Origin: Streptomyces sp. S3(2020)
GTDB lineage: Bacteria; Actinomycetota; Actinomycetes; Streptomycetales; Streptomycetaceae
DNA length: 64,000 nt
Assembly: GCF_013044505.1 (NCBI RefSeq)
Contig: NZ_JABERD010000013.1
Span: 1 to 64,000 of the forward strand
Direction of reading: 5' to 3'
Shown here: positions 28,308-61,199 of the stretch, one piece after another
Position numbering within the stretch: the first letter of the stretch is position 1
Layout: each line of letters opens with the position of its first letter
Translations under genes and position numbers: made by a program
The notes under the pieces: model-generated
What the model was told of the DNA's origin: nothing
Seen by the model: only the letters and a program-made list of their open reading frames with translations
The model's database searches: none

Positions 28308-28886
28308 TCACCGGAGGAAGCCCCGGATCGCCCGGCCCAGCGTCTCCTCGTCCCGGATGTCCGTGCCGCCCAGGGCCAGCAGCCGGTGCGGCACATGGAC
28401 CAGTGTCTCGGCGACCTGCCGGGCCGAGGTCCCCGGAAGACCCGGTTCGACCAGGACGACATCCGCCCGGTCGGCGGCGAGGGCGGCCGTGCGCAGGCCG
28501 ATCTCGTCGAAGGGCCGGACGGTGGTCGTGTAGAGGACGGCCAGGTCGAGGCCCGCGGTGGCGCGCAGCACCGGGTCGAGGGTGGAGCCGACCGCGAGGA
28601 CCACGCCGTCGAGGCCTTCCCGGACGAGTTCGCACCCTTCCGTCGCCCCGCGCGGCTCGGCGTTGGAGTCGGCGCCGACATGGATGTACGCCCGTCCGCC
28701 GCCCGCCACCGCGGCCAGGACGGCTCGGCGCACTTCGGCGGGATGGCCGGGGACATGCACGGTCCAGCCCGGGGTGGCGGCGAATCTGCTCAGCTCCTCC
28801 ACCGCTCCGTAGCCGACGAGGACGGTGCCGCCCGCCGTGGACTCCGGAAGGGACTCGGCGGCGGCGATCAGCATGTCGGAGTGCAC
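28308..28886 (-). CDS. Shortened transketolase C-terminal-domain protein
   Basis: This 192-residue protein resembles the C-terminal half of stand-alone transketolase-like proteins. VHVPGHPAEVRRAVLAAV and the Rossmann-like VREGLDGVVLAVGSTLDPVL and YTTTVRPFD segments are conserved. The N-terminal pyrimidine-binding part is missing and the usual C-terminal extension is short. The GTG at 28886 follows a perfect AGGAGG, so translation is expected despite the reduced size. It diverges from the cytokinin operon across 256 bases. The fas locus of Rhodococcus fascians also includes TPP-enzyme-type genes, but relationship is unproven. It may be decayed. Confidence 0.6.
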   Translation of the reverse strand: MHSDMLIAAAESLPESTAGGTVLVGYGAVEELSRFAATPGWTVHVPGHPAEVRRAVLAAVAGGGRAYIHVGADSNAEPRGATEGCELVREGLDGVVLAVGSTLDPVLRATAGLDLAVLYTTTVRPFDEIGLRTAALAADRADVVLVEPGLPGTSARQVAETLVHVPHRLLALGGTDIRDEETLGRAIRGFLR

Positions 28887-29142
28887 GGGACGACCTCCTG
28901 GTGAGGATATTCTTCCGGCACGTCAAGAATTCGTTAGGAAACAGTCTCGACGCTCGCTCATATCGCTCTGGATTCCCCGCACTTGAGCCACTCACCCCGG
29001 GTAATTCAACCTTTAACAGGCTCACAGGAATGTGGACGTCTCTTTGCCGGGTCCAGATGTCCGCCTGGTTCTTGACGATGGCCGCCGCGTTTACCTTGAC
29101 ACTCATCTCTCCTGTAGATGAAGCGGAAGGGGACACCCCGCC
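28887..29142. other. AT-richer divergent spacer before the cytokinin operon
   Basis: This spacer is visibly richer in A and T than its surroundings and holds no supported gene. TTGACG and TTGACA -35-like boxes occur at about 29072 and 29097. GGAAGGGGA at 29125-29133 is the ribosome site for the first rightward gene. Lower GC content than the chromosome background is a mild sign of acquired DNA. Confidence 0.5.
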
Positions 29143-29949
29143 ATGGCCCAGAGCGACACGCGTCCGACGTCAGGCCCGTTGGTCCATCTCATCGCCGGGC
29201 CGACCGGGGTCGGCAAGAGCGCGGCGGCCACGCGGCTGGCCCGGGCGACCGGTGTCCCGATCGTGGTCGCCGATCGTCTCCAGTGCTTCACGGACCTCGC
29301 CACCACGAGCGCCCGCGCGGGTGCCGATGTGCCGGGGGTGCGCCGGTACTGGCTCGGGGACCGCACCTTCGCCGACGGTGACCTGTCCGCGGCGGAGGCG
29401 GCGGACGCCCTGGTCGCGCTGGTGGAGCGTCTTGGCGCCCTGCACCGGTCGGTGATCGTCGAGGGTGGCTCGATCTCGCTGCTGCGGGAGCTGGCCGCCC
29501 GCCGGGCCGACCTGTCCTGGCGGCTGTCGGTCCGCCTTCTGTCCCCGCCCGGGCGGGACGAGTACGTCGCCGCGCTGGCCCGCCGGGCCCGCGAGATGCT
29601 CGCCCCGCAGGCTCCGGGCGACAGCCTGCTCCAGGAACTGGCGGCGCTGTGGCGCGAGCCGCGGCAGCGGCTGCTCGCGGCCTCCGTCAACGGCTTCGAG
29701 GCCGTCCTCGAATGCTGCGCCAAGTACGCGCTGGAGGTGGAGTCCGTCGACCGGCAACCTCTTTCGGAACACGTACTGGACCGGATGGCCGCACTGATCG
29801 CCGAACGGCACGCCGAACACGGTTTTCTCCAGCATCGCGTGTTCTCCGAAATTTTCGACAGTCCAATAGCGGGCCCGGAATTCGACGGATTCGATGGACT
29901 CGACGGATCTGACGGATCCGACGGCGACTTTCTGGAGCGTGTGGCGTGA
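29143..29949 (+). CDS. Adenylate isopentenyltransferase (cytokinin synthase, FasD/Tzs-like)
   Basis: This 268-residue protein is an isopentenyltransferase of the bacterial cytokinin class. It transfers a prenyl group from DMAPP to the N6 of AMP. The P-loop GPTGVGKS (residues 19-26), VVADRLQCFTDLATTSAR and GVRRYWLGDR segments fit the Tzs/FasD group rather than tRNA-modifying MiaA, which is longer. The ATG at 29143 follows GGAAGGGGA. The C-terminus ends in an unusual Asp/Gly/Ser-rich tail (FDGFDGLDGSDGSDGDF) encoded by near-tandem GACGGATC units. The stop overlaps the region of the next start, so it is co-transcribed with a cytokinin-dehydrogenase-like gene and a LOG fusion. Confidence 0.85.
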   Translation: MAQSDTRPTSGPLVHLIAGPTGVGKSAAATRLARATGVPIVVADRLQCFTDLATTSARAGADVPGVRRYWLGDRTFADGDLSAAEAADALVALVERLGALHRSVIVEGGSISLLRELAARRADLSWRLSVRLLSPPGRDEYVAALARRAREMLAPQAPGDSLLQELAALWREPRQRLLAASVNGFEAVLECCAKYALEVESVDRQPLSEHVLDRMAALIAERHAEHGFLQHRVFSEIFDSPIAGPEFDGFDGLDGSDGSDGDFLERVA

Positions 29950-29972
29950 ATGCGATCCGGGAGGACGAGGAC

Positions 29973-31322
29973 ATGGCACTCGCCTCGCACGATTTCGGCC
30001 ACATCGTGGAATCCCGCCCGCTCGGTGTTCTGGCGGCGCGTTCCTGTGCCGCGGTCGGGGAACTCGTCGCCTTCGCCGGGACGCAAGGGGTGCCGGTCGC
30101 CGCCCGCGGCTGTGGACACGCCCCGTACGGGCAGGGCCAGGCGGACGGCGGATACGTCGTCGACATGGGCGGACTCGACGAGGTGCGCTGTGTGCCGGGC
30201 GACCGGACGCTGGTCGCCGGGGCGGGCGCGACCTGGGGCGAGGTCGTACGGGTCGGGCTCGCCGAGGGGCTGGTGCCGCCGGTGCTCCCCGACCATCTGG
30301 GCGCGAGTGTCGGCGGGGTGCTGAGCACCGGCGGGTTCGGCGGATCGAGCCACCGCCGCGGCCTTGTCGCCGACTGGGTGCGGGAACTGGAGGTGGTCAC
30401 CGGCACCGGCGAGCGGCTGGTCTGTTCGCCCGAGCGGCATCCGGACCTGTTCGGCGCGGTCCTGGCGGGACTCGGCCAGTGCGCCCTGATCGTCCGCGCC
30501 GCGCTCCGGCTGGTGCCCGCACCTGTACGCGTCCGCCGCTACCGCCTCTACCACGAGGATCCCGCCGGCTTCTTCACGGACCAGCGCAGACTGGCCCGCG
30601 ACGGCCGGTTCAGCCATGTCGCGGGCCGGGCCCGCCCGGCGCTCGGTGGCACCTGGAGCTACATGATCGAGGCGGTGGCGCCGTACGGCGGTGAACTCCC
30701 CCGCGTGGACGACCGGTTGACCGGTGACGAGCTGTCGCCCGGTGACGAACTGTCCCTCCGTGACGACCTGTTGATCGGTGATCTGGACCACGACCGGGAC
30801 AGCGAGGAGATCGAGGACCTGTCGTACGTGGAGTACCTTCACCGCCCGGACCGCGACGAGCGGCTGCTGCGTGCCACGGGTGAATGGGACCGTCCGCATC
30901 CCTGGCTCACGCTGCTGCTCCCGGAGGCGGCGGCCGCGGCCTTCGTCCCGGCGGTGCTGGCCGAGGCCGACCAACAGGGCCTCAGGTTCTGCGGAGTGGT
31001 GCAGCTGCGTCCGCTCTCCGGGCGCGTGCTCGGCGCACCGCTGCTGCGCAGGCCGCCCGGCGAACTCCTGTGCCTGCTCTCCCTGATGCGCACCGCACCG
31101 CCCACCGATCCGGGCACCGTACAGCGCATGGTCGCCGCCAATCGCGCCCTGTACGAGCGGGCCAGGGCCGTGGGCGGAGTCCTCCATCCCGTCAGCGCGC
31201 TGCCGATGACGGGAGAGGACTGGCGGGCCCATTTCGGCCCCGACTGGGCGGACTTCGCCCGCGTCAAGGAGCAGTACGACCCCCAGCACATCCTGACCAG
31301 GGGGTACGGGCTGTGGGCGTGA
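29973..31322 (+). CDS. FAD-linked oxidoreductase, cytokinin-dehydrogenase-like (FasE-like)
   Basis: This 449-residue flavoprotein has a VAO/PCMH-type FAD-binding N-terminal domain. [11 protein letters not shown] contains His49 in the position that carries covalent FAD in cytokinin dehydrogenases (GHS/GQ motif). [20 protein letters not shown] is the second FAD-contact loop. The C-terminal end [14 protein letters not shown] is typical. The ATG at 29973 follows GGGAGGAC. A GTG at 29946 that overlaps the upstream stop as GTGA is an alternative. In fas loci such enzymes cleave or remodel isopentenyladenine-type cytokinins. The Asp/Glu-rich insertion [20 protein letters not shown] is unusual. Confidence 0.8.
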
Positions 31323-32821
31323 GCGCCGTGACCGTCTTCTGCGGTGCGTCCACCGGGCACCGTCCCGCCCCGCTGCACGCCGCCGCCGATCTGGGCCGCG
31401 CCCTGGGAGCGGCCGGGATACGGCTGGTCTACGGCGGCGCCCGCACCGGGCTGATGGGCGCCGTCGCGGACGGGGCGCTGGGCGCGGGAGGCTCAGTGAC
31501 CGGGGTCGTGCCCCGCGCGATGCTGCCGTACGAGATCACCCATACGGGACTGACCGACCTCGAAGTGGTCGCGGACCTCCATGAGCGCAAGGCGCGGATG
31601 GCCGAGTCGGGCGACGCGTTCGTGGCGCTGCCGGGCGGTCTGGGCACGGCGGAGGAGCTCCTTGAGGCGTTGGCCTGGGCGCAGTTGGGCCTGCACCGCA
31701 AACCGTGCCTCCTGCTCGATCCGTCCGGTTTCTTCCGTCCGCTGCTGTCCTTCCTGGAGCATGCCAGGGACGAGGGCTTCCTGCATGCCGGTGATCTGGA
31801 GCGGATCGTGGTGTGCCGGTCGGCCGAGGAGGTGCTCGCGCGGCTGGCGAGCGCACCGGCCGCCGACGCTCCGGTGCGGGTGCCGCGGGGCCGGACCGCG
31901 TTCCTGTTCTCGGCGGCCGGCTCGCAGCAGCCGCGGATGGGGCGTGAACTCCACGCCACGTCACCGGTGTTCGCCGATGCCCTCGACGAGGTGTGCGGGC
32001 TGCTCACCCCCTACCTGGACCTGCCGCTGCGGGACGTGATGTTCGCCCCGCCCGGGACACGCACCGCGGCGCTGCTCGACCAGGTCGCGTACGGGTTCCC
32101 GGCGATCTTCGCGCTCCAGGTCGCCCAGTACCGGCTGCTGGAGAGCCAGGGACTGCGCCCCGACGTGCTGTTCGGCTACTCGGCCGGGCACATGGCGGCG
32201 GCCCACGCGGCGGGGGTGTTCTCGCTGGCGGACGCCTGTCGTGCGGTCGGCACGCTGTCGCGACTGGTGCGGACCCTGCCGGAGGGCGGATGCATGGCCG
32301 CGGTGGAGGCTGCGCCACAGGAACTGCACCTGGGGCCGGGCGCGGTGGTCGCGGCGGTCAACGGACCCCGGTCCGTCGTCGTGGCCGGGGACCGCGAGGC
32401 AGTGACGGCGGTGTGCGCGCGGTGGACGGCCCGGGGGCGCCGCACCCATGTGCTGCGCGTGGACGCGGCTCCCCACTCCCCGCGCTTCGAGCCCCTCCTC
32501 GCCGACTACCACCGGACCCTGCTCACGATGGAACTCCACGTTCCCCGTATCCCCCTCCTGTCCGACACCACGGCCGCACCGGTCACCAGGGCGGCCACCG
32601 AACCCGGTTACTGGGTACGCGCGCTGCGCCGGCCCGTCCGCTTCGCGGACGCGGTCGCCCGTCTGCACGCCGAGGGCACGACCACCTACCTCGAACTCGG
32701 ACCGGGCGAGGTCCTGACCGGCATGCTCGACGCCTGTCTGCCCCGCGGAGCCGACCGTCCGCTGCTCCTGTCCGTGACACGGAACTGGCGAGCGCTCCGC
32801 AAGGAGACGGACGCGGCCTGA
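31319..32821 (+). CDS. LOG phosphoribohydrolase fused to an acyltransferase domain
   Basis: This is a two-domain protein of 500 residues. Residues 1-185 form a LOG-type cytokinin-nucleotide phosphoribohydrolase with [16 protein letters not shown] and PGGLGTAEE (105-112). From about residue 195 to the end runs a FabD/PKS-type acyltransferase: [14 protein letters not shown], nucleophile Ser288 in GYSAGH, His386 in APHSP, and [15 protein letters not shown]. In the alignment I made by eye, the Arg that binds malonyl carboxylate is Leu (GTLSRLVR). A monocarboxylic acyl group is therefore more likely. The GTG overlaps the previous stop as GTGA. No acyl carrier protein is encoded nearby. Confidence 0.83.
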
Positions 32822-32824
32822 AGG

Positions 32825-32840
32825 CGCCAGCCGCCTGGCG
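32825..32840. terminator. Short hairpin at the end of the cytokinin operon
   Basis: CGCCAG (32825-32830) and CTGGCG (32835-32840) form a 6-bp stem with a 4-base loop just after the LOG-acyltransferase stop, between convergent genes. Confidence 0.45.
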
Positions 32841-32892
32841 GATGCCAACGCGGCGCCGGGAGCCGCCGGACTCCTGTCGGTCCTCCGGGTCG

Positions 32893-33729
32893 CTACGGCG
32901 TCTCCAGCCTGCGCAGCCGCTCCGCGTCTCCCGTGCGCGGGCAGGTGGAGCAGGCCTCGGCCGGGCGGATCGCGTAGAACATGCAGCAGCCGGTGCGGGT
33001 ACGGGTGGCGTGGCGGGTGCCGTCGTCGCCGACCAGGTAGCGGAAGTCGGCGCCGCTGGGGTACGGGGGCACGGGGATCGGCAGCACCTCGGTGGCGGCC
33101 CTGATCGCGGCGCCCTCCTGGCCCAGCATCCGGCCGAGGTACCAGAGGGCCGACACCAGGTCGTCGGAGACCATGCCCCACAGGGCGCGCGAGCGGCGGC
33201 GCGCGACCGGCCCGATCGCGGCCAGCAGGGGGCGCATGTGCTCGGCGAGGGACATGCGCAACTGGGCGCGCAGCTGGTCCTCCTGAGGGAGCGTCAGCAC
33301 GCCGGGGAGTGCGGCCACGGGGTCGCCGGGGAGGCAGGCGAGTTCGGTGCCGGGTGTGATCTCGTACGTTCCCGAGGCGAGGTCGAGACGGAGGTCCTCG
33401 GGCCGGATGCGGGGCACCCTCCGTTCGAGGTACCAGGTGCCGCCCATGAGGACGCCGACGGACCAGGCGTAGTCGTGCAGGGCGCGGGAGGCAGCGACGT
33501 CCGGGCGTACGGCGACTCCGTAGCGGTCGCGGATGCGGGCCGACTCGGCTTCGACGAACGCGTCCAGCACGGCTCGATCGGACGCCAACAGGTCGGCCGT
33601 CACACCTGTTCGGCCCTCTTCCGCGACTCTCGCGTCCAGCGCTGCGCAGATGCCGGCCAGTCGTCGGTAGACGTCACCGAGGGCTCGCGATACGGCACCG
33701 TCCGGCGTGGTCTTGAGGGCCAGGGACAT
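32893..33729 (-). CDS. FhuF-like 2Fe-2S ferric-siderophore reductase
   Basis: This 278-residue protein carries the FhuF C-terminal cluster motif, CCMFYAI followed by CSTCP. Its four cysteines bind a 2Fe-2S centre used to reduce ferric siderophores in the cytoplasm. The ATG at 33729 follows GGAG by 7 bases; a longer frame start at 33777 would overlap the iron box. It diverges from the siderophore import/biosynthesis operon across two iron boxes, so it should be induced under iron limitation together with the transporter. Confidence 0.83.
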   Translation of the reverse strand: MSLALKTTPDGAVSRALGDVYRRLAGICAALDARVAEEGRTGVTADLLASDRAVLDAFVEAESARIRDRYGVAVRPDVAASRALHDYAWSVGVLMGGTWYLERRVPRIRPEDLRLDLASGTYEITPGTELACLPGDPVAALPGVLTLPQEDQLRAQLRMSLAEHMRPLLAAIGPVARRRSRALWGMVSDDLVSALWYLGRMLGQEGAAIRAATEVLPIPVPPYPSGADFRYLVGDDGTRHATRTRTGCCMFYAIRPAEACSTCPRTGDAERLRRLETP

Positions 33730-33769
33730 CGACGTGCTCCAGGTGCAGGGGAGATCCAGAAGAGGTTTA

Positions 33770-33788
33770 ATAGGCAAGCCTTACCTTA
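33770..33788. promoter_or_regulatory. Iron box 1 (IdeR/DmdR1-type)
   Basis: The 19-bp sequence ATAGGCAAGCCTTACCTTA matches the actinobacterial iron-box palindrome TWAGGTTAGSCTWACCTWA at 16 positions. It lies 41 bases upstream of the FhuF-like start and is expected to bind the Fe(II)-loaded DtxR-family repressor. Confidence 0.75.
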
Positions 33789-33849
33789 CCTCGATCAAGG
33801 GACCCGCATGTCAACGCATCTCAAAGGAATCACACAGTCAGTTGAAAAC

Positions 33850-33868
33850 TAAAGCAAGCCTCACCTAA
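33850..33868 (+). promoter_or_regulatory. Iron box 2 (IdeR/DmdR1-type)
   Basis: TAAAGCAAGCCTCACCTAA matches the iron-box consensus TTAGGTTAGGCTCACCTAA at 14 of 19 positions, with a perfect right arm. It lies 12 bases upstream of the GTG of the first permease gene, where repressor binding would silence the operon. Confidence 0.72.
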
Positions 33869-33879
33869 GCTCACGCCTC

Positions 33880-34911
33880 GTGACTGCGATCCATCGGGAC
33901 GCACCCCCCACAGGTGTGCCCTTTCGTGCCTTCAGGCGCATACCGCTCTTCCTGACCGGCCTCGCGGCCCTGACCCTCTGCATCGCCCTGAGCCTCGCCC
34001 TCGGCGCCCGCTCGATCCCCCTGTCCACCGTGGCCGACGCCCTGTTCGGCCACACCCACGGACGCGACGCCCTCGTCGTGACCGGGCTGCGACTCCCGCG
34101 CACCGTCATCGGCCTCGCAGTCGGCGCCGCGCTCGGCGCCGCCGGAGCCGTCGCCCAGGGCATCACCCGCAACCCGCTCGCCTCCCCCACGACCCTCGGC
34201 ATCAACGCGGGCGCGGGCTTCGCGGTCGTCGTCGCGATCTACGCACTGAAGCTCGACGACCCCGTCGAGTACGTGTGGTTCGCGTTCGCCGGAGCCGCGG
34301 CCGCCGCCGTCCTCGCCCAGGCGCTGGCCCGCCGCGCCGGCGACATCGATCCCGTACGGCTCGCCCTCGGCGGCACCGTGCTCCAACTCGTGCTGCTGTC
34401 CTGGACGTCCGCGGTGATGCTGCTCAACCAGCGCACCCTCGACGAGGCCCGCTTCTGGCTCGCCGGCTCCCTGTCCGGACGCCCCCTCGACACACTGTGG
34501 CCGGTCCTGCCGACCCTGCTGCTCGGCGTCGTCATCGCGCTGGCCGTCTCCCCCGCCCTCAACGCCCTTGCCCTGGGCGACGATTCGGCGCAGGCCCTCG
34601 GTGTCCCGGTGGCCCGGATCCGACTGGCCGGCGGTGTCGCGGTCGTCCTGCTCGCCGGTTCGGCGGTCGCGGTGGCCGGGCCGATCGCCTTCATCGGGCT
34701 CGCCGCACCCCATCTCGTACGTCCGCTGCTCGGCGGCGACCACCGGCTGCTGGTGCCCGGCTGTCTGATCGCCGGTCCGCTGCTGCTGCTCGCGGCCGAT
34801 GTGCTCGGCCGCATGGTGATCCGCCCCTCGGAGCTGGAGGTCGGCATCGTGACCGCGTTCCTGGGCGCGCCCCTGCTGGCGCTGCTGGCCCGGAAGGTGG
34901 CGACCCGGTGA
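33880..34911 (+). CDS. Iron-siderophore ABC permease (FecCD), subunit 1
   Basis: This 343-residue FecCD-type permease has about ten transmembrane segments. The hallmark GLRLPRTVIGLAVGAALGAAG and the GITRNPLASPTTLGINAG loop near residues 85-110 are present. The start is GTG at 33880. It is the first gene of an iron-box-controlled operon with the second permease, ATPase and binding lipoprotein. Its stop overlaps the next start as GTGA. Confidence 0.9.
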   Translation: MTAIHRDAPPTGVPFRAFRRIPLFLTGLAALTLCIALSLALGARSIPLSTVADALFGHTHGRDALVVTGLRLPRTVIGLAVGAALGAAGAVAQGITRNPLASPTTLGINAGAGFAVVVAIYALKLDDPVEYVWFAFAGAAAAAVLAQALARRAGDIDPVRLALGGTVLQLVLLSWTSAVMLLNQRTLDEARFWLAGSLSGRPLDTLWPVLPTLLLGVVIALAVSPALNALALGDDSAQALGVPVARIRLAGGVAVVLLAGSAVAVAGPIAFIGLAAPHLVRPLLGGDHRLLVPGCLIAGPLLLLAADVLGRMVIRPSELEVGIVTAFLGAPLLALLARKVATR

Positions 34912-35921
34912 ACCGGTCCAGGACCCGTGGGCGCGTCCTCGTCTTCGCCGGCTCCGGCCTCGTGGCGCTGTTCGTGCTGCTCACCGTCTCCCTGACGACC
35001 GGTGAGATGCGGATCCCCGCCACCACCGCGCTGCGCGCCCTGGTCGGGCTCGGCGACGCGGGAGACGTCCTCGTGGTGCAGCAGTTCCGCGCGCCCCGGT
35101 CCCTCGCCGCGATCGCCGGTGGCGCCGGGCTCGGTGTGGCGGGCTGTGTGCTGCAACGGCTGTTCCGCAACCCCCTGGCCTCCCCGGACGTCATGGGGGT
35201 GACCGGCGGTGCCTCGCTCGGCGCGGTCGCGCTGATCGCGGCCGGGGCCTCCCAGACGCTGATCCCGCTCGGGGCACTGGGCGGCGGCCTCCTCGCGGCC
35301 CTGCTCCTGGGCGTGTTCGCCTGGGGTTCCGGGCTCGCCGTCACCCGCCTGGTGCTCACCGGGCTGGCCGTGCAGGCGGGGCTCGCCGCCGCCGTGAACC
35401 TGATGATCGTGCGCTTCCCGGCCGAGCTGGCCGGATCGGCGCTCCAGTGGACCACGGGTTCGGTGTACGGGCGGACGTGGACGGAGGTGTGGGGAGCGGG
35501 CGGCGCCATGGCGGGCGCGCTCGCCGCCGCCTTCGTCCTGCATCGCCGGCTGGCCGTGCTCGACCTCGGCGACGACTCCGCGGGCGCCCTCGGGCTCGAC
35601 ACCTCCAGGGCACGCCTCCAACTGCTCGTCCTCGCGGTCGTGCTGGCCTCGCTCGCCGCCGCGCTCGCCGGTCCGGTGACTTTCGTGGCGCTCGCGGTGC
35701 CGCACATCGTGCGGTTCGTCACCGGGCCGCCCACCGCCGCCTCGCTCGCGCTGGCGGGCCTCACCGGGGCGGTGCTGCTGCTCGCCTCCGACCTGGTGGT
35801 GCAGCACCTGCTGCCGATCGAGGGGCTGCCGGTGGGCGCGGTCACCGCGACGCTCGGGGCGCCCTGGCTGCTGGTGCTGATGTTCCGGCAGAGCTCGCCC
35901 GTGCAGAGGAGCCACGCATGA
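34908..35921 (+). CDS. Iron-siderophore ABC permease (FecCD), subunit 2
   Basis: This 337-residue FecCD permease pairs with the preceding gene product. RAPRSLAAIAGGAGLGVAGC and LFRNPLASPDVMGVTGGASLG mark the conserved segment. The GTG overlaps the upstream stop by four bases and its own stop overlaps the ATPase ATG. The hydrophobic profile shows about nine to ten helices. Confidence 0.9.
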   Translation: MNRSRTRGRVLVFAGSGLVALFVLLTVSLTTGEMRIPATTALRALVGLGDAGDVLVVQQFRAPRSLAAIAGGAGLGVAGCVLQRLFRNPLASPDVMGVTGGASLGAVALIAAGASQTLIPLGALGGGLLAALLLGVFAWGSGLAVTRLVLTGLAVQAGLAAAVNLMIVRFPAELAGSALQWTTGSVYGRTWTEVWGAGGAMAGALAAAFVLHRRLAVLDLGDDSAGALGLDTSRARLQLLVLAVVLASLAAALAGPVTFVALAVPHIVRFVTGPPTAASLALAGLTGAVLLLASDLVVQHLLPIEGLPVGAVTATLGAPWLLVLMFRQSSPVQRSHA

Positions 35922-36757
35922 CCGCCGGACCGGAGACCCATGTGAACACGCCCAACCAACTCGCCACCGAGTCCCTCGACCTCCGCTACGGCGACCGGCT
36001 CGTCGTCGGCGGCCTCGACCTCACCCTGCCGGGCGGCGCGGTGACCGCGATCGTCGGGCCCAACGCCTGCGGCAAGTCCACGCTGCTGCGCGCACTGAGC
36101 CGGCTCCTGGCCCCCGCCGCCGGCACCGTCACCCTCGACGGCTCCGACATCCACCGCATGCCGGCGAAGGCCCTGGCCCTGCGCATGGGTCTGCTGCCGC
36201 AGCAGCCGGTCACCCCCGAGGCGATCACCGTCGAGGCGCTCGTCCGGCTGGGCCGCTATCCGCATCAGCGGCTGCTGAGCCCCTGGTCGGCCGCCGACCA
36301 GAGGGCGGTGGACGCGGCCCTGGAGCGCACCGGGACCGCGGCCCTGCGCGACCAGCCGGTGGACCGGCTCTCCGGCGGCCAGCGCCAACGCGCCTGGATC
36401 GCCCTGGCGTTGGCCCAGGACACCGAGCTGCTCCTGCTCGACGAGCCCACGACCTTCCTCGATCTGCGCCACCAGCTCGACGTACTCGACCTGGTGGCCG
36501 CCCTGCACGCCGAGGCGGGCCGCACCGTGGTGATGGTGCTGCACGACCTCGGACAGGCCGCCCGTTACGCGGACCACATGGTGGTCCTCAAGGACGGCCG
36601 GCTCGCCGCCGCCGGAGCCCCGGCGGACGTCCTCGACGCGGAGCTGGTGAGGTCCGTGTTCGACGTGGACTGCCGGGTCATCCCCGACCCGGAGACCGGC
36701 ACCCCGCTGGTCGTCCCGAAAGGCAGCGCGGTACGGCACTCCGCCGCCACCGCTTGA
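35918..36757 (+). CDS. Iron-siderophore ABC ATPase (FecE/FepC-like)
   Basis: This is a 279-residue ABC ATPase. Walker A is GPNACGKST, the signature LSGGQRQR and Walker B LLLLDEPTTFLDL are intact, and the switch His lies in VLHDLGQAARYADH. It energises the two FecCD permeases upstream. The ATGA overlap with the permease indicates coupled translation. The extended C-terminal tail after residue 250 is common in siderophore ATPases. Confidence 0.92.
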   Translation: MTAGPETHVNTPNQLATESLDLRYGDRLVVGGLDLTLPGGAVTAIVGPNACGKSTLLRALSRLLAPAAGTVTLDGSDIHRMPAKALALRMGLLPQQPVTPEAITVEALVRLGRYPHQRLLSPWSAADQRAVDAALERTGTAALRDQPVDRLSGGQRQRAWIALALAQDTELLLLDEPTTFLDLRHQLDVLDLVAALHAEAGRTVVMVLHDLGQAARYADHMVVLKDGRLAAAGAPADVLDAELVRSVFDVDCRVIPDPETGTPLVVPKGSAVRHSAATA

Positions 36758-36788
36758 TCAGTACCTACCAGGAAAGAACCAACCCCCC

Positions 36789-37808
36789 ATGTCCCACCGC
36801 TTTGCCATGCCCGGAATCCGCCGGATTCTGGCCTCTCTGCTGTCCGTGACACTCGGTACCGCCGTTCTGGTCGCGTGCGGCGGCTCGGAGTCCGACGACT
36901 CCGCCGCCGCGAAGCCCGCCTCCGACACGGGCGGCGCCTTCCCCCGCACCCTCAAGACCGCCATGGGCGACGTCGAGATCCCGTCCCAGCCCAAGCGGGT
37001 CGTCGTGCTCGACACCGGTGAGCTGGACGACGTGACGCTGCTCGGCATCGACCCGGTCGGCGCGGTCGCCCCGCACTTCAAGACGGAGGGCGGCTTCCCG
37101 ACGTACCTCAAGGGCGAGTTGAAGAACACCGCCGACGTCGGCCCGCTCCTTGAGCCCGACCTGGAGAAGATCGCCTCGCTCAAGCCCGATCTGATCCTGT
37201 CCTCCAAGGTCCGGCACGAGAAGGTCTACGACAAGCTCAACGCCATCGCCCCGACCGTCTTCACCGAGACCACCGGCGGTGTGTGGAAGGAGAACCTGAA
37301 GGTCCACGCCGAGGCGCTCGGCCTGGAGAAGGAGGCCGCGGCCAAGCTCACGGCGTACGAGACGCGGGCCAAGGCGCTGGGCGAGGCCATCAAGAAGAAG
37401 GACGGCGGCACGATGCCGACCGCGTCCGTGGTCCGCTTCATCGCCGGTCCGACGCGGCTGTACCAGTCCAACTCCTACAGCGGTGTCGTCCTGAACGACA
37501 TCGGCTTCAAGCGGCCGTCCTCGCAGGTCTCGAACGACCCCGAGGTCACGATGAAGGACGTCAGCCCGGAGCAGATCGACCAGGCCGACGCCGACCTGAT
37601 CTTCGTCACCTCCGCGGACGTGGACGACAAGACGCAGAAGAAGCAGGTCACCTCGAACCCGGTGTGGAAGTCCCTGCCCGCCGTGAAGGACGGCAAGGTC
37701 TTCGAGGTCCCGGACGAGACGTGGATGTCCGGCATCGGTGTCCAGGCCGCCGAGCAGATGCTCGCGGACGTGGCCAAGGCCACCGGCGTGCCTCTTCCCA
37801 CCGAGTAA
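36789..37808 (+). CDS. Siderophore-binding lipoprotein (FecB/FhuD-like)
   Basis: This 339-residue periplasmic-binding-type lipoprotein has a signal peptide ending in the lipobox LVAC, with Cys30 lipidated. A TroA/BtuF-fold body follows with PKRVVVLDTGELDDVTLLGI and PDLEKIASLKPDLIL. AGGAAAG lies upstream at a slightly long distance. It completes the importer and captures the ferric siderophore presumably made by the genes downstream. A hairpin with a T-run follows, likely reducing read-through into biosynthesis. Confidence 0.9.
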   Translation: MSHRFAMPGIRRILASLLSVTLGTAVLVACGGSESDDSAAAKPASDTGGAFPRTLKTAMGDVEIPSQPKRVVVLDTGELDDVTLLGIDPVGAVAPHFKTEGGFPTYLKGELKNTADVGPLLEPDLEKIASLKPDLILSSKVRHEKVYDKLNAIAPTVFTETTGGVWKENLKVHAEALGLEKEAAAKLTAYETRAKALGEAIKKKDGGTMPTASVVRFIAGPTRLYQSNSYSGVVLNDIGFKRPSSQVSNDPEVTMKDVSPEQIDQADADLIFVTSADVDDKTQKKQVTSNPVWKSLPAVKDGKVFEVPDETWMSGIGVQAAEQMLADVAKATGVPLPTE

Positions 37809-37822
37809 CTCCCGCTGAATCG

Positions 37823-37854
37823 GGGCGGGCCGCGGTCATGGCCCGGGCCCGCCC
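37823..37854 (+). terminator. Hairpin between uptake and biosynthesis genes
   Basis: GGGCGGGCC (37823-37831) pairs with GGCCCGCCC (37846-37854) and is followed by TTT. It may act as a partial terminator separating uptake from synthesis genes within one operon. Confidence 0.55.
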
Positions 37855-37894
37855 TTTCAACCCCCCACCCGCTAGCGGAAGTTCTCCTCCACCC

Positions 37895-39073
37895 ATGCGT
37901 CTGTACCTGCTTGCCCTCAACCCGACCGACTCCGTCACCGAGGGCTTCCTGCCCGCGGCCGCCCGCCTGGGCCTGGACGTCAGCGTCCTCACCGACCAGC
38001 CCGACGCCCACCGCGCCGCCTACCCGGACATCGAGATCCTTCCGTGCGACGTCCGCGACTTCCGGGCGGTCGTCACCCGTATCTCCACCCACCACCGGCC
38101 CGACGCGGTCTTCACCAACAGCGACCACCTCCAGACCCAGGCCGCCCTGGCCGCCGCCTACTTCGGGCTCCCCGGCAAGGACTGGCGGGCCACCCTGCGC
38201 TGCAAGGACAAGGCCGAGATGCGCCGCCGGCTCGCCGACGCGGGCGTGGACACGGTCTGGTCGACCGAGCTCACCGAACCGGCCGCCGCCCCGCCGGACG
38301 CCCCGTACCCCTGTGTCGTCAAGCCGCGCGAGGGGGTGGCCAGCGAGGACGTCGTCCTCGTCGACAACGCCGAGGACCTCATGACGCGGTCCAAGGAGAT
38401 CTTCGACCGGCGCCCCGGCACCGTCCTGGTCGTCGAGGAGTACCTTCCCGGCGAGCTCTACACCCTGGAGACCCTGGGCGACGGGCGGACCCGGCACGTC
38501 CTGGGCGGCTTCCACACCGAGCTGTCGCCGCCGCCGTACTTCATCGAGGAGTGCCTCACCTTCGTGCCGGCCCACCCCGGGCCGGTCGTCGCGCAGGTCC
38601 TCGCCCAACTGGACGCGCTCGGCGTCGGGTTCGGCGCCTGCCACACCGAGTTCGTGGTGTACGAGGGCCGGGCGAGGATCATCGAGGTCAACTACCGGGC
38701 CATCGGCGACCAGTGCGATCTGCTGCTGGCCCGACTGCTGGAGATCCCGCTCTTCGAGCACATCCTCCGCGCCCACCTGGGTGAGCCGCTCCCCGCCGAC
38801 CTGGGCGCCCGCCGCGACGGCGCCGCCCGGCTGGAGTACCCCTGCGCCGAGCGCCCCGGCACCCTCACCGAGGCTCCGGCGGCCACGGAACTGGACGTCG
38901 ACGGTGTGCACTTGACGTACCGTCCGCTGCGCCAGCCGGGCGAGCGGCACGAGCTGTACGGCACCAATCGCGACTACCTCGGCGTCCTGCGTGCCACGGG
39001 CACCGACCAGCCGACGGTGGACCGGGTGACGGCCGACTTCCTTGCCGGGCTGCGCTGGGAGATCCAGCCGTGA
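37895..39073 (+). CDS. ATP-grasp enzyme of the siderophore cluster
   Basis: This 392-residue protein has an ATP-grasp core: PCVVKPREGVASEDVVLVDN (ATP-binding lysine), VVEEYLPGELYTLE, and the metal-binding ARIIEVNYRAIGDQCD. ATP-grasp enzymes ligate a carboxylate to an amine via acyl phosphate. The ATG at 37895 fits the N-terminal Rossmann-like fold. Its stop overlaps the following NIS synthetase start (GTGA), so it belongs to the biosynthetic set. It may add an extra amide to the siderophore or make a precursor. The exact role is unknown. Confidence 0.78.
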   Translation: MRLYLLALNPTDSVTEGFLPAAARLGLDVSVLTDQPDAHRAAYPDIEILPCDVRDFRAVVTRISTHHRPDAVFTNSDHLQTQAALAAAYFGLPGKDWRATLRCKDKAEMRRRLADAGVDTVWSTELTEPAAAPPDAPYPCVVKPREGVASEDVVLVDNAEDLMTRSKEIFDRRPGTVLVVEEYLPGELYTLETLGDGRTRHVLGGFHTELSPPPYFIEECLTFVPAHPGPVVAQVLAQLDALGVGFGACHTEFVVYEGRARIIEVNYRAIGDQCDLLLARLLEIPLFEHILRAHLGEPLPADLGARRDGAARLEYPCAERPGTLTEAPAATELDVDGVHLTYRPLRQPGERHELYGTNRDYLGVLRATGTDQPTVDRVTADFLAGLRWEIQP

Positions 39074-40764
39074 CGGCCGTGACAGACGGGACGGCCGCGG
39101 CGGCCGACACCTGCGCGCAGGAACTGCTCACGCGCGTGCTCAGCGCCCTGCTCCGCGAGGACGTGGTGGGGCTACGCACCGCCAGCACGCTCGTGCACCG
39201 GCCGGACGGCCCCTGGCTGCGGTTGCCGGACAGGGACTCCGGGGCCGACGCGCTGCTCCTGCCCGTCGTCGAGGACGGCTTCCAGTGCGAGTACGCGGCC
39301 CGGCTGCCCCTGCTCGTCCGCGAGTCGGACGGCGCCGAGCTGACCTCGTACGACACCGTCCTCAGCGCACTGCGCGCACTCGCCGACCCCGTCGACCGCG
39401 AGGGCTACGACGCCTTCGCCGAGGAGTGCCGGCAGACGCTGGCCACCCTGCGGCTGCACACGGCCACCCGGTCCGAGGTCGAGGGGAGGTTCGGCGGCGA
39501 CTCGACACGCTGGCCCGCACTGGCCTACGACACCCTCGCCGCCCGGCTCGACCATCCCGTCTATCCGACCGCGCGCGGCCGCTCCGGCCTCGACGAGCCG
39601 CAACTACAGGCCTACGCACCGGAGTTCCACCCCCGTTTCGCGCTGCGCTGGATCGCCCTGCGCCGCGAGACCGTCACCCTGACCGGTACGCTCCCCGCCT
39701 TCTGGCCCACCCCCCGGCAGCTCGGCCTCGCCGAGGTGGAGGGCACCCATGTGGTCCTGCCGGTGCATCCGTTGACGGTCGACGCCCTGTGGGACGCCGG
39801 GCTCCCGGACGGGGCGGTGTTCGCCGACCGGACCCACCTGGAGGTCGTACCGACCCTGTCGATGCGTACGGTGGCCGTGAACACGTCGGTGCACCTCAAA
39901 CTCCCGCTGGCCACGGCCACGTTGGGGCTGCGCAACAAGCGGACCGTCAAGCCCGGCACGCTCGTGGACGGCGCCGCGGGACAGCGGCTGCTGGAAGCCG
40001 TGATCGCCAGGGAGCCCCGGTTCCAGGGCATCATCCTGCACGCCGACGAGGCGACGTACGCCCATGCCGGGCACGAGCTGCTGGCCGTCCTGTGCCGGCG
40101 CTTCCCGGCCGCCGTGGACGGCGCCGAGGTCGTACCGCTGGCCGCCCTGCTCGCCGACGCCCCGGACGGGCGGCTGGTCATCGACCATCTGGCCGACCGC
40201 TTCTACGGCGGCGACCCGCTCGCCCTGCTGGACGCCTTCCTGACGCTGCTGTTCGACTGGCAGACCACACTGTTCGGGTACGGCATCGCGCTGGAGTCGC
40301 ATCAGCAGAACATCTCGCTCGTGCTGCGGCCGGGCGATCTGCGGCTGCTGTTCAAGGACAACGACGGGCCCCGCGTCAACGCGAAGCGGCTCGGCGCGGT
40401 GCTTCCCGGCCCGTGGGGCTTCGACGACGCACGGACCTGCGTCTCCGGGGACGGGCCGGTCGCCGACCTGTTCGCCACCATCACCGTCCATCTGTGCGCG
40501 GGCGCCTACGCGTTCGGCCTCCCTGGGCACCGGCGGGCACTCCTCGGCCTCCTGCGCGACCGGCTGGCCGAGTCCGTGGACCGGCTCGGCGGGGACGCGG
40601 CCGCCGTGCTGCGCGAGCGGGTCCTTGACGCGCCGCGGCTGCCGGTGAAGGCGATGGTCACGGCCGGCTCGCTGCTGTCCAAGGAGCGGTCCGGCGCGGC
40701 CGACATCAACAAGCACTACACGACCGGCCCCAACTACCTGTTGCGACAAGGCGGTTCGGCATGA
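39070..40764 (+). CDS. IucA/IucC-family NIS siderophore synthetase 1
   Basis: This 564-residue IucA/IucC protein carries the adenylation signatures of NRPS-independent siderophore synthetases: VLPVHPLTVDALW (in place of the common HPWQ), MRTVAVNTSVHLKLPLATA, and ESHQQNISLVLRPGDLRLLF with FKDNDGPR. It activates a carboxylic acid such as citrate as the adenylate and condenses it with an amine. The GTG overlaps the ATP-grasp stop. Two synthetases in one operon suggest two successive amide formations. Confidence 0.9.
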   Translation: MTAVTDGTAAAADTCAQELLTRVLSALLREDVVGLRTASTLVHRPDGPWLRLPDRDSGADALLLPVVEDGFQCEYAARLPLLVRESDGAELTSYDTVLSALRALADPVDREGYDAFAEECRQTLATLRLHTATRSEVEGRFGGDSTRWPALAYDTLAARLDHPVYPTARGRSGLDEPQLQAYAPEFHPRFALRWIALRRETVTLTGTLPAFWPTPRQLGLAEVEGTHVVLPVHPLTVDALWDAGLPDGAVFADRTHLEVVPTLSMRTVAVNTSVHLKLPLATATLGLRNKRTVKPGTLVDGAAGQRLLEAVIAREPRFQGIILHADEATYAHAGHELLAVLCRRFPAAVDGAEVVPLAALLADAPDGRLVIDHLADRFYGGDPLALLDAFLTLLFDWQTTLFGYGIALESHQQNISLVLRPGDLRLLFKDNDGPRVNAKRLGAVLPGPWGFDDARTCVSGDGPVADLFATITVHLCAGAYAFGLPGHRRALLGLLRDRLAESVDRLGGDAAAVLRERVLDAPRLPVKAMVTAGSLLSKERSGAADINKHYTTGPNYLLRQGGSA

Positions 40765-41951
40765 GCGCCGGGGCTCTGCGGATCCCGCGGTCCGCCTCCG
40801 GCCGCGGTCAGGTGCACGCGGTGGCCGCCTGCTATTTCGTGGCGTCCTTCGCGGCCCTGGGCCTGCCGCCCTACCTCACCGAGATCCTGCCGGAACTCGG
40901 CGACCGCGAGGCCCGCTGGGCGGGGGTGCTCTATGTCGTCCCGACCGTGTTCGGAGGTCTGGCGGCCCCGATGTGGGGGCGGCTCGCCGACCGCTACGGC
41001 CGTAAACGGCTGCTGCTGCGCGCCCAGTTGGGGCTCGCGGTGGCGTTCCTGCTCGCCGGGTGGGCCGACTCGCTGGCCACCTTCACGGTCGCGCTCGTCC
41101 TCCAGGGCGTCCTGGGCGGCACCTTCGCCGCCTCCAACGGCTATCTGGGCGCGGCCCTGGAGGGCCCGGCCCTGTCGAAGGCGCTCACGCTGATGCAGGG
41201 CAGCGCCCGGGCGGCCCTGGTCTTCGCGCCGATCGTGGTCGGCGCGCTGTCCGGCTGGCTGTCCCCGCACCGCCAGTACGCGCTCCTGGCCGTACTCCCC
41301 CTCACGGCCGCGCTGTTGCTGGCGGCCCTGCCCGAACCGGAGCCGGTCGCCCGCACCACGGACGAGGCCGTCACCGCGGATCGCACGTCCCCGGTGATGT
41401 CGCTCAAGGCGCTCTACGCGATCGAGTTCGCCTTCGTCTTCTCCACCGTCATCTCCTTCCCCTATCTCATCGCCCTGGTCGACGACCGGCTCCCGGGCAC
41501 CTCGCCGACGCTGTCCGGAGTGCTCTTCGCCCTCCCCCACCTGTGCTATCTGGTGGCGGCGCTGGCCGTGCACTCCAGGTTCCGCGGCCGTCCCAGGGCC
41601 GGGATCGTGCTCGGTTTCGTCCTGATCGCGCTCGGTCTCGCCGGACACGGCGTCGTCGACTCGCTGCCCGCGCTGATCGCCGTACGGCTGCTGCTCGGCG
41701 CTGGGCTCACGCTCGGTCTGGTGTGTCTCCAGGTGCTCGCCGCGGACTGCGCCAAGGGCCGGGCGCCCGGCGGGCTGTTCGGTTCGCTGGAGTTCTTCTC
41801 CAAGGCCGGCGCGGTCGCCGCCGGCCTCGTCGCGGCCGCCGGCAGTGTCCGCTTCGGCCCCGCCGCCCCCGCGCTGACCGGCGCCGCCGCTGCCGCCGTC
41901 ACCGCCGTGGCGGCCCTCGTCCCCTCCATGACCCCCCGCTGGAGCCGCTGA
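40761..41951 (+). CDS. MFS exporter of the siderophore cluster
   Basis: This 396-residue MFS transporter has about twelve helices and the A-motif-like GRLADRYGRKRLLL near residue 75. It lies between the two NIS synthetase genes with one- and four-base overlaps, the position of siderophore exporters such as SbnD or SfaA in staphylococcal operons. Export of the apo-siderophore is the likely job. Confidence 0.87.
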   Translation: MSAGALRIPRSASGRGQVHAVAACYFVASFAALGLPPYLTEILPELGDREARWAGVLYVVPTVFGGLAAPMWGRLADRYGRKRLLLRAQLGLAVAFLLAGWADSLATFTVALVLQGVLGGTFAASNGYLGAALEGPALSKALTLMQGSARAALVFAPIVVGALSGWLSPHRQYALLAVLPLTAALLLAALPEPEPVARTTDEAVTADRTSPVMSLKALYAIEFAFVFSTVISFPYLIALVDDRLPGTSPTLSGVLFALPHLCYLVAALAVHSRFRGRPRAGIVLGFVLIALGLAGHGVVDSLPALIAVRLLLGAGLTLGLVCLQVLAADCAKGRAPGGLFGSLEFFSKAGAVAAGLVAAAGSVRFGPAAPALTGAAAAAVTAVAALVPSMTPRWSR

Positions 41952-43678: not shown

Positions 43679-44877
43679 CCCCTGCCGTCCACGACCGCGC
43701 CCTCGCCCTCACGTCGGCCGAACTGCCCGCCTACCTGTACGACTTGGCGGCGCTGCGCACGCACGCCGCCGCCGTACGGTCCGCTCTGCCCGAGCGGGTC
43801 GAGCTGTACTACGCCGCCAAGGCCAACCCCGAGCCGGAGATCCTCGCCGCGCTCGGTCCGTACGTCGACGGCTACGAGGTCTCCTCGGGCGGTGAACTCG
43901 CCCATGTGGCCGCGGCGGTGCCAGGGCGTCCGCTGGCTTTCGGCGGCCCCGGCAAGACGCCGGACGAGGTGACGGCCGCGCTGGAGCTGGGGGTCGAGCG
44001 CTTCCACGTCGAGAGCGGGTACGAGCTGCGGATGCTGGGCGAGCTGGCGCGGCGGGCCGGGCGGCGGGTGGGGGTGCTGCCGCGGGTCAACCTCGCCCTG
44101 TCCGACGGTTCACTGGCGGGCAGTTCGCTGGCGATGGGCGGGCGTCCGACACCGTTCGGCATGGACCCGGCCCAGGCCGCGGAATTGGTCCACGCGCTCA
44201 CGGACGGTGCCTATCCGCACCTCGAACTGCGGGGCGTGCACGCCCACTTGGCCAGCGGTCTCGAAGCCCCGGAACAGCTCGCGGTGGCCGAGGCGATCGT
44301 GGCCTGGGCCACCGGACTCGGGGTCCGGATCGGGGAGGTGAATGTCGGTGGCGGTATGCACGTCGACTACGCGGACCCGGACCGCCGCTTCGACTGGGCC
44401 GCGTTCGGCGAGGGGCTCGCGCGACTCGGCGCGGCGCACCCGGAGTTGACGCTGCGCATCGAGCCGGGGCGGGCACTTACGGCGTACTGCGGCTGGTACG
44501 CCACGGAGGTGCTGGACGTGAAGCGGAGCCACGGCGAGGAGTTCGGTGTGGTCCGGGGCGGTACCCACCATCTGCGGACCCCGGCCACGAAGGGCCACGA
44601 CCAGCCCTGTTCCGTCCTGACGGTGGACCGCTGGCCGCACCCCTGGGAGCGGCCGGCGACCGAGGGCGAACACATCACGCTGGCCGGGCAGTTGTGCACA
44701 CCGAAGGACGTCCTCGCCCGCCGGGTCCCCGCGGCGGGGCTGCGGGCGGGTGACCGGGTGGTGTTCGCGCTCGCGGGTGCCTACGCGTGGAACATCTCCC
44801 ACCACGACTTCCTGATGCACCCCCGGCCCGGCTTCCACTTCCTGGACGCCGGCCCGGAGGTCGTCGGCCGGTCCTAG
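43675..44877 (+). CDS. LysA-like PLP decarboxylase of the siderophore cluster
   Basis: This 400-residue fold-type III PLP enzyme is of the diaminopimelate/ornithine decarboxylase group. The PLP lysine is in YYAAKANPEPEI, the glycine-rich phosphate site in EVNVGGGMHVDYAD, and the EPGRAL motif is present. In staphyloferrin B clusters a similar protein (SbnH) decarboxylates a precursor, so a diamine or decarboxylated intermediate is expected here. It is the last gene of the operon. Its TAG stop is formed by the CTAG end of a MITE-like element. Confidence 0.85.
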   Translation: MTPAVHDRALALTSAELPAYLYDLAALRTHAAAVRSALPERVELYYAAKANPEPEILAALGPYVDGYEVSSGGELAHVAAAVPGRPLAFGGPGKTPDEVTAALELGVERFHVESGYELRMLGELARRAGRRVGVLPRVNLALSDGSLAGSSLAMGGRPTPFGMDPAQAAELVHALTDGAYPHLELRGVHAHLASGLEAPEQLAVAEAIVAWATGLGVRIGEVNVGGGMHVDYADPDRRFDWAAFGEGLARLGAAHPELTLRIEPGRALTAYCGWYATEVLDVKRSHGEEFGVVRGGTHHLRTPATKGHDQPCSVLTVDRWPHPWERPATEGEHITLAGQLCTPKDVLARRVPAAGLRAGDRVVFALAGAYAWNISHHDFLMHPRPGFHFLDAGPEVVGRS

Positions 44878-61155: not shown

Positions 61156-61199
61156 GTCCACTACAGTCGGGCGATTTCCGGCCACCGTCAACACTTGTG

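What the first reader, a model, noticed from the sequence alone, without database searches (positions are those of the whole stretch)
28887..32821. Compact cytokinin-type operon ending in a LOG-acyltransferase fusion
Sequence shows an isopentenyltransferase, a GH/GQ-motif FAD oxidoreductase and a LOG domain encoded in one strand with start/stop overlaps. The LOG protein continues into a complete FabD/PKS-type acyltransferase with Ser288 and His386. Known fas loci use IPT, CKX and LOG with P450 and TPP-enzyme partners. A LOG-acyltransferase fusion without carrier protein is, as far as I know, unusual. The operon may make an acylated cytokinin or adenine derivative. I cannot verify whether known FasF proteins carry a similar C-terminus.
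Basis: partly seen in the sequence, partly recalled or inferred. Interest (0 to 1): 0.86.

Follow-up and report, generated by a model that had tools for sequence, protein, structure and literature searches.

The report
Fas-like cytokinin operon with LOG-acyltransferase fusion
Some Streptomyces carry a remodelled relative of the plant-hormone operon of leafy-gall bacteria in which the hormone-activating enzyme is fused to a captured polyketide acyltransferase that kept its catalytic residues but lost those that grip malonate, so the operon may release a modified cytokinin that has not been looked for.

Summary
In a Streptomyces genome, 29143-32821 (+) encodes IPT, a CKX-like flavoprotein and a 500-aa LOG-acyltransferase (LOG-AT), with GTGA overlaps. 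It is a fas-type locus: 40, 38 and 52% identity to R. fascians FasD, FasE and FasF, and an unnoticed FasC relative lies divergently at 28308-28886. R. fascians FasF has no AT. Near-full-length LOG-AT occurs in 10 of 392 Streptomyces genomes and in no other genus of the class and family samples. In 17 distinct copies the AT keeps Ser and His (17/17) and has lost the malonyl-anchoring Arg, GQG Gln, GHS His and HAFH Phe (17/17 each); 17 close PKS ATs keep all four. AT dN/dS resembles that of neighbouring genes. Two syntenic loci have LOG alone. In 14 of the 17, an ABC exporter follows; the window strain lacks it. FasC has lost its GIREQ stretch and 18 of 20 CKXs the FAD-linking His. Best reading: a diverged cytokinin-type pathway whose LOG gained an AT for a non-malonyl acyl group. 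Activity, substrate and product are inferred. New variant of a known kind.

The parts
28308..28886 (-). FasC-like mini-protein (192 aa), divergently transcribed; keeps the FasC C-terminal half, lacks the stretch that holds GIREQ in FasC
   Evidence: 47% identity to FasC residues 93-260; same internal deletion in 14 of 14 locus copies aligned, not in FasC or L060; weak Pfam Transketolase_C and Transket_pyr, both below cut-off
28887..29142 (.). divergent intergenic region, presumed promoter region
   Evidence: 256 bp here and in 9 of 17 loci, 254-256 in 12 of 17; no promoter was tested
29143..29949 (+). isopentenyltransferase (FasD homologue, 268 aa)
   Evidence: Pfam IPT 1.5e-54; 40% to FasD; P-loop, VADRLQC and EGGSISLL kept
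29946..31322 (+). cytokinin dehydrogenase-like flavoprotein (FasE homologue, 458 aa); GHA in place of GHS, DHL in place of DYL, catalytic Asp kept
   Evidence: Pfam, PDB matches to plant CKX 1.2e-54, motif table
31319..32821 (+). LOG-acyltransferase fusion (500 aa)
31319..31846 (+). LOG domain, residues 1-176, with PGGLGTAEE
   Evidence: Pfam Lysine_decarbox 1.9e-41, 52% to FasF
31889..32788 (+). acyltransferase domain, residues 191-490
   Evidence: Pfam Acyl_transf_1 4.1e-53; AT fold
32180..32182 (+). codon of Ser288, presumed nucleophile in GYSAG
   Evidence: kept in 17 of 17
32255..32257 (+). codon of Leu313, at the place of FabD Arg117
   Evidence: alignment with PKS ATs; Leu 14, Gln 2, Met 1 of 17
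32474..32476 (+). codon of His386, presumed catalytic His in AAPH
   Evidence: kept in 17 of 17
32822..32892 (.). place where 14 of the 17 LOG-AT copies have an ABC exporter gene of about 584 aa; absent here

Best explanation
A chromosomal, remodelled fas-type cytokinin locus. IPT prenylates AMP and the LOG domain cleaves the prenylated nucleotide to the free base plus ribose 5-phosphate (both by homology to characterised families). The AT domain, captured once from malonyl-type modular PKS stock and fused in frame to the LOG C-terminus, forms an acyl-Ser288 intermediate from a donor that is not a dicarboxylic acyl group and passes it to a small acceptor of the same pathway, most simply the cytokinin base or a hydroxylated form of it. 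In most relatives an ABC exporter would secrete the product. Shown: the fusion, its conservation, the kept Ser-His dyad, the lost malonyl-binding residues, purifying selection, operon and synteny. Likely from trees: one origin. Inferred: that the AT is active, its donor and acceptor, and export.
For: IPT and LOG signature motifs intact. Over 17 LOG-ATs: Ser 17, His 17; FabD-Arg117 position Leu 14, Gln 2, Met 1; GQG Gln lost 17; GHS to GYS 17; HAFH Phe to Pro 10, Ala 5, Gly 1, Met 1; 17 of 17 PKS ATs compared keep all four. Arg117 salt-bridges malonyl in FabD, and Arg-to-Gln in PedD allowed acetylation of the Ser (PMC11775670, passages). Median dN/dS: LOG 0.22, AT 0.36 (136 pairs), IPT 0.31, CKX 0.36, FasC-like 0.40. 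LOG-AT domains are one clade against the 17 PKS ATs, SH-aLRT 100. Syntenic LOG-only L062 lies outside the LOG-AT loci on the CKX tree (SH-aLRT 82). The exporter (ABC_membrane, ABC_tran) follows in 14 of 17 and has dN/dS 0.13.
Against: No activity, substrate or product data. The AT is absent at L041 and L062, has a large deletion in S. geranii (L069) and is frame-broken in G097 (L040), so it is dispensable; the S. turgidiscabies copy (L067) is open but reads in a shifted frame over a short stretch near the C-terminus. In G1013 LOG-AT stands alone about 445 kb from a FasC-like-IPT-CKX-exporter locus without LOG; G182 has LOG-AT and no IPT. No carrier-protein domain found nearby. Isopentenyladenine has no hydroxyl to acylate, and no FasA-like P450 was found in the window. 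Loss of the Gln and Phe that ATs and acyl hydrolases share could mean loss of activity. The window strain lacks the exporter.
Confidence: 0.42

Rival explanations
1. The AT half is no longer catalytic: it is a structural or sensing module of a LOG enzyme, and the operon makes an ordinary isopentenyladenine-type cytokinin.
For: Four pocket residues lost in 17 of 17; AT lost or degraded in several relatives where LOG stays; AT dN/dS above that of LOG.
Against: The Ser-His dyad is kept in 17 of 17, and AT dN/dS equals that of the CKX gene.
Confidence: 0.22
2. The AT half is an acyl hydrolase-like editing domain that takes acyl groups off thioesters to water, as PksD and PedC do in trans-AT PKSs, without making an acylated product.
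For: Loss of the malonyl Arg is called diagnostic of acyl hydrolases, which also lack the GHS His (PMC11775670, passages); Gln at that place in 2 of 17.
Against: The same paper calls the Phe before the His and the oxyanion Gln (or His) strictly conserved; both are lost in 17 of 17. No assembly line lies beside the locus to be edited.
Confidence: 0.13
3. The AT acts in trans on a carrier protein of another pathway and its fusion to LOG is incidental.
For: LOG-AT stands alone in G1013; Streptomyces genomes are rich in PKSs, as the many AT matches show.
Against: At the other copies it is tied to IPT and CKX genes; no carrier-protein gene travels with it in the neighbourhoods read.
Confidence: 0.08
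4. The locus is a decaying fas operon: FasC, CKX and the AT are all on the way to loss, and no defined product is made.
For: FasC internal deletion, CKX FAD His lost in 18 of 20, exporter lost in the window, broken LOG-AT in G097 and S. geranii.
Against: Every gene of the operon has median dN/dS 0.13-0.40 across many species; the same FasC deletion is kept in 14 of 14 copies.
Confidence: 0.15

Closest known systems
fas operon of Rhodococcus fascians D188 (pFiD188)
   Same: IPT-CKX-LOG in the same order on one strand and a FasC homologue next door; 40, 38, 52 and 47% identity to FasD, FasE, FasF and FasC
   Different: No significant match to FasA or FasB in the window; FasC divergent and internally deleted; CKX FAD His lost in 18 of 20 scorable locus copies and the DYL Tyr replaced by His in all; FasF has no AT; an ABC exporter follows in most relatives
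island fas operon of Streptomyces turgidiscabies Car8
   Same: fas type, in Streptomyces
   Different: Has Mtr1, Mtr2 and FasA to FasE by tblastn and no LOG in the 12 kb read; the LOG-AT locus of the same genome is a second, separate one
IPT-LOG fusion of R. fascians A21d2
   Same: A LOG fused to another enzyme of a cytokinin pathway (PMC4092121, passages)
   Different: The partner is IPT, not an acyltransferase; no CKX
malonyl-type AT domains of modular PKSs (e.g. 6iyo, GfsA AT)
   Same: Fold, Ser-His dyad, 47-54% identity to 17 Streptomyces PKS ATs
   Different: Lacks Arg, GQG Gln, GHS His and HAFH Phe; fused to LOG; no KS or ACP beside it
acyl hydrolases PksD and PedC of trans-AT PKSs
   Same: Malonyl Arg and GHS His lost, Ser-His kept (PMC11775670, passages)
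   Different: Gln and Phe that the paper calls strictly conserved are absent; much closer in sequence to cis PKS ATs
AgmA of angustmycin biosynthesis
   Same: LOG-type phosphoribohydrolase in a Streptomyces pathway to a compound with cytokinin activity (PMC8599513, passages)
   Different: The passages describe it as an AMP phosphoribohydrolase in a pathway with other partners; not compared by sequence here

Membership tests
fas-type cytokinin operon | IPT of the FasD type | tested here: met
   Pfam IPT 1.5e-54, 40% to FasD
fas-type cytokinin operon | LOG of the FasF type | tested here: met
   52% over 178 residues; carries an extra AT
fas-type cytokinin operon | CKX of the FasE type with GHS and DYL | tested here: inconclusive
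   38% to FasE; window has GHA (His kept) and DHL (Tyr lost); 18 of 20 scorable locus copies lack the His
fas-type cytokinin operon | FasB and full-length FasC (split TPP enzyme) | tested here: not met
   FasB: no match in the window; FasC internally deleted
fas-type cytokinin operon | P450 FasA | tested here: not met
   tblastn of FasA against the window: only E 0.39 over 32 residues
fas-type cytokinin operon | Mtr1 and Mtr2 methyltransferases | not tested
   not searched in the window
LOG phosphoribohydrolase | PGGxGTxxE and the catalytic Arg | tested here: met
   both in 17 of 17; which Arg is catalytic is taken from the family by position
malonyl or methylmalonyl AT (FabD/PKS) | AT fold with Ser-His dyad | tested here: met
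malonyl or methylmalonyl AT (FabD/PKS) | Arg that binds the malonyl carboxylate | tested here: not met
   Leu 14, Gln 2, Met 1 of 17
malonyl or methylmalonyl AT (FabD/PKS) | HAFH or YASH specificity motif | tested here: not met
   x-A-(P/A/G/M)-H in 17 of 17
acyl hydrolase (PksD/PedC) | malonyl Arg replaced, usually by Gln or His | tested here: inconclusive
   replaced in 17 of 17, but by Leu in 14
acyl hydrolase (PksD/PedC) | strictly conserved Phe before the His, and oxyanion Gln (or His) | tested here: not met
   both absent in 17 of 17 (feature from PMC11775670)
any of these | measured activity | not testable with these tools
   none

The most novel reading that the evidence does not exclude
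LOG-AT is a bifunctional enzyme of a new type: a cytokinin phosphoribohydrolase with its own acyltransferase, which gives the freed base or a hydroxylated form of it a non-malonyl acyl group. The result would be an acylated cytokinin-like molecule, exported by a dedicated ABC transporter: a new class of purine signal from a chromosomal Streptomyces pathway, built from a fas operon whose CKX and FasC were remodelled too.
Probability: 0.27. Interest if true: 0.82.

Novelty: new variant of a known kind. Interest (0 to 1): 0.62.

Why it matters
Bacterial cytokinin genes are best known from plant pathogens; one review calls R. fascians FasE the only characterised functional bacterial CKX, then mentions active cyanobacterial enzymes as partly unpublished (PMC8234997, passages). 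Here a fas relative sits at a fixed chromosomal site in a set of Streptomyces, with three of its proteins remodelled, one by capture of a PKS domain. If the AT is active, it adds a tailoring step to cytokinin-type purines and shows how a PKS AT is turned to another donor or acceptor. Syntenic LOG-only loci are a natural control, so the product question can be tested directly.

Tried and rejected
Rejected: (1) 'Known FasF proteins carry this C-terminus': R. fascians D188 FasF is LOG only, and so are the LOGs of L041, L059 and L062. (2) Chance or assembly fusion: 17 distinct open copies. (3) An ordinary malonyl AT: its binding residues are lost. (4) Presence outside Streptomyces: none at E <= 1e-85 in the class sample (2 of 394 genomes match, both Streptomyces; 1 of 137 genera) or the family sample (8 of 394, all Streptomyces; 1 of 17 genera).

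Led nowhere: papers on LOG-AT fusions or acylated bacterial cytokinins (listings of an open-access library, passages where cited). tblastn of LOG-AT in plasmids: 0 records with one place covering 80% of it. Two searches on the arginine of loading ATs gave no passage on it. The intergenic region was only aligned.

Dropped before counts: L157 (identical to L070) and L162 (the same locus) from sequence comparisons; PKS locus L019 (no usable open frame in the stretch my script took), which leaves 17 of 18 PKS loci fetched; from the CKX His count, L040 (gap at the motif), L060 (true fas) and L162, which leaves 20 of 23 called CKXs; L040 and L069 from the open LOG-AT set. G182 (L038), G292 (L037) and a few others were left out of the dN/dS sets, which used 15 or 16 genes each. 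L067 was kept although a short C-terminal stretch is out of frame.

Results against the reading: on the LOG tree LOG-only L041 falls just outside the LOG-AT copies (SH-aLRT 84), against the CKX tree, where it nests inside beside S. bicolor (99). Support for L062 outside the LOG-AT loci is 82, on a long branch.

Full report
Observation. The window lies at G000:C13:1-64000. Its genus follows from named relatives with the same locus, all Streptomyces. IPT 29143-29949, CKX-like 29946-31322 and LOG-AT 31319-32821 are on the plus strand with 4-bp GTGA overlaps. Pfam gives IPT; FAD_binding_4 and Cytokin-bind; and Lysine_decarbox (residues 46-175) plus Acyl_transf_1 (195-470). The AlphaFold model (10-sequence alignment, mean pLDDT 82.1, pTM 0.69, below 50 at 108-112 and 120-126) has an AT fold in its second half: best Foldseek match a salinomycin PKS AT (6iyo), E 1.6e-30; 4rl1 and 8czc align with TM-scores of 0.81 and 0.85 by target length. 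The LOG half matches solved LOG proteins by sequence at 2.5e-51.

It is a fas-type locus. Against R. fascians D188 the window proteins are 40% (FasD), 38% (FasE), 52% (FasF) and 47% (FasC) identical. Alignment A2 shows that it keeps an N-terminal start and the C-terminal half but lacks the stretch with GIREQ in 14 of 14 locus copies; FasC and L060, a true fas locus, have it. That this Glu activates TPP is recalled family knowledge. FasA and FasB have no significant match in the window. FasF itself is a 193-aa LOG without AT.

Distribution. A match over at least 490 of 500 residues occurs in 10 of 392 Streptomyces genomes, the window's included. Of the same 392, 14 have an IPT: nine of those ten, plus G097 (LOG-AT frame-broken), G001 and G014 (same locus, LOG alone), and G120 and G315, whose IPT loci have LOG alone (L059, L060, L061) or no LOG called (L058). 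The tenth, G182, has LOG-AT and CKX but no IPT. The family sample adds G1015, G1006, G1019, G911 and G1013; the class sample adds nothing outside Streptomyces. Named carriers: S. turgidiscabies Car8, S. bicolor, S. cyaneus, Streptomyces sp. NRRL WC-3618 and LUP47B; S. geranii has an AT with a large deletion. Seventeen distinct open sequences were compared; G1006 is identical to S. bicolor. The S. turgidiscabies copy reads in a shifted frame over a short stretch after the dyad.

Context. In 14 of the 17 the next gene is an ABC exporter of about 584 aa (ABC_membrane, ABC_tran); not in the window, G292 or G1013. The spacer is 28 nt in 7 of the 14, 26-31 nt in 10 and 63-229 nt in 4, and 28 nt also at LOG-only L062 (starts as called by my script). 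The window's nearest relative, G1015 (LOG-AT 95% identical), has the exporter; the window does not, and in its genome the matches listed at E <= 1e-60 are 30-35% identical. Upstream, at the usual site and where the contig reaches, lie a mycothiol-dependent formaldehyde dehydrogenase and an MBL-fold protein: a fixed chromosomal site. Exceptions: G292 has the operon elsewhere, the exporter being left at the old site; G1013 keeps FasC-like, IPT, CKX and exporter at the site and has LOG-AT alone about 445 kb away.

Origin of the AT. The LOG-AT domains form one clade against 17 PKS ATs (SH-aLRT 100), to which the window AT is 47-54% identical. On the CKX tree LOG-only L062 lies outside all LOG-AT loci (SH-aLRT 82, long branch) and LOG-only L041 nests inside, beside S. 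bicolor (99). On the LOG tree, with 180 columns, L041 falls just outside the LOG-AT copies (84). One gain with one later loss is the simplest history on the first tree, but the second does not bear out the loss.

What changed in the AT. Ser288 and His386 are kept in 17 of 17. The FabD Arg117 position is Leu in 14, Gln in 2, Met in 1; the GQG Gln is Ala 10, Gly 4, Ser 2, Thr 1; GHS is GYS in 17; the HAFH Phe is Pro 10, Ala 5, Gly 1, Met 1. The 17 PKS ATs compared keep all four. The PksD paper says that Arg117 salt-bridges malonyl, that its absence is diagnostic of acyl hydrolases, that Arg-to-Gln in PedD gave acetyl loading without hydrolysis, and that the Phe and the oxyanion Gln (or His) are strictly conserved (PMC11775670, passages). 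LOG-AT fits neither class. Median dN/dS (Nei-Gojobori): LOG 0.22 and AT 0.36 over 136 pairs; IPT 0.31, CKX 0.36, FasC-like 0.40, exporter 0.13 over 105-120 pairs. The AT is about as constrained as IPT, CKX and FasC-like, less than LOG and the exporter.

CKX. A review states that all active CKXs bind FAD through the His of GHS, that mutating it costs structural integrity, and that flavinylation needs a Tyr beside the catalytic Asp (PMC8234997, passages). FasE and L060 have GHS and DYL. In the LOG-AT-type loci the Asp stays and the Tyr is His in all; the FAD His is kept in 2 of 20 scorable copies (window and G1015, as GHA), Gln in 9, Tyr in 8, Leu in 1. LOG-only L062 shares these changes, so they do not depend on the AT. 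The protein may hold FAD without a covalent link and may no longer degrade cytokinins; this is inference.

Mechanism. IPT and LOG are canonical by motif, so a prenylated adenine base is the likely core product. The AT most likely makes an acyl-Ser from a monoacyl donor in a less polar, more open pocket (inferred from the replacements, not from a structure) and hands it to a small acceptor. The acceptor is the weakest step: isopentenyladenine has no hydroxyl, but Tzs-type IPTs can use the hydroxylated MEP-pathway donor (recalled, not tested), which would give zeatin and an ester site. Confidence is 0.42 for an active AT in this pathway, lower for any named product.

Known or new. No paper in the listings is on a LOG fused to an acyltransferase, as far as titles, abstract starts and the passages read show. 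The nearest published fusion seen is IPT-LOG in R. fascians A21d2 (PMC4092121, passages). I rate this a new variant of a known kind.

Noticed in passing
L155 (S. turgidiscabies Car8, island fas operon) and L067: Mtr1, Mtr2 and FasA to FasE are found on the island but no FasF/LOG in the 12 kb read; the same genome has a chromosomal LOG-AT locus, which could supply LOG activity.
   Followed up: partly
window 29946-31322 and CKX genes of relatives: The CKX-like family of this locus lost the FAD-linking His in 18 of 20 scorable copies and the Tyr beside the catalytic Asp in all, but keeps that Asp and, with few variations, the PHPWL and HFG motifs.
   Followed up: partly
window 28308-28886: A mini-FasC with a shared internal deletion, median dN/dS 0.40, no FasB match in the window: a former half of a TPP enzyme with an unknown role.
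   Followed up: partly
window 32893-44877: A FhuF-like gene, transport genes (named by eye from the translations), an ATP-grasp protein, two IucA/IucC synthetases, an MFS protein and a PLP decarboxylase: an NRPS-independent siderophore cluster. In G1015 (L161) only fragments of its last genes lie beside the exporter.
   Followed up: partly
L031 2725-6197 and equivalents in relatives: An MBL-rhodanese, a TauE-like, a metal-sensing repressor and a YgaP-like gene lie between the mycothiol dehydrogenase and the FasC-like gene in many relatives; not in the window.
   Followed up: no
window 59305-61161: ORF of 618 aa called by my script, with no Pfam match at 1e-5.
   Followed up: no
window 61249-63213: EF-G-like GTPase of 654 aa by Pfam; whether a second EF-G or a ribosome-protection-type protein was not tested.
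   Followed up: no
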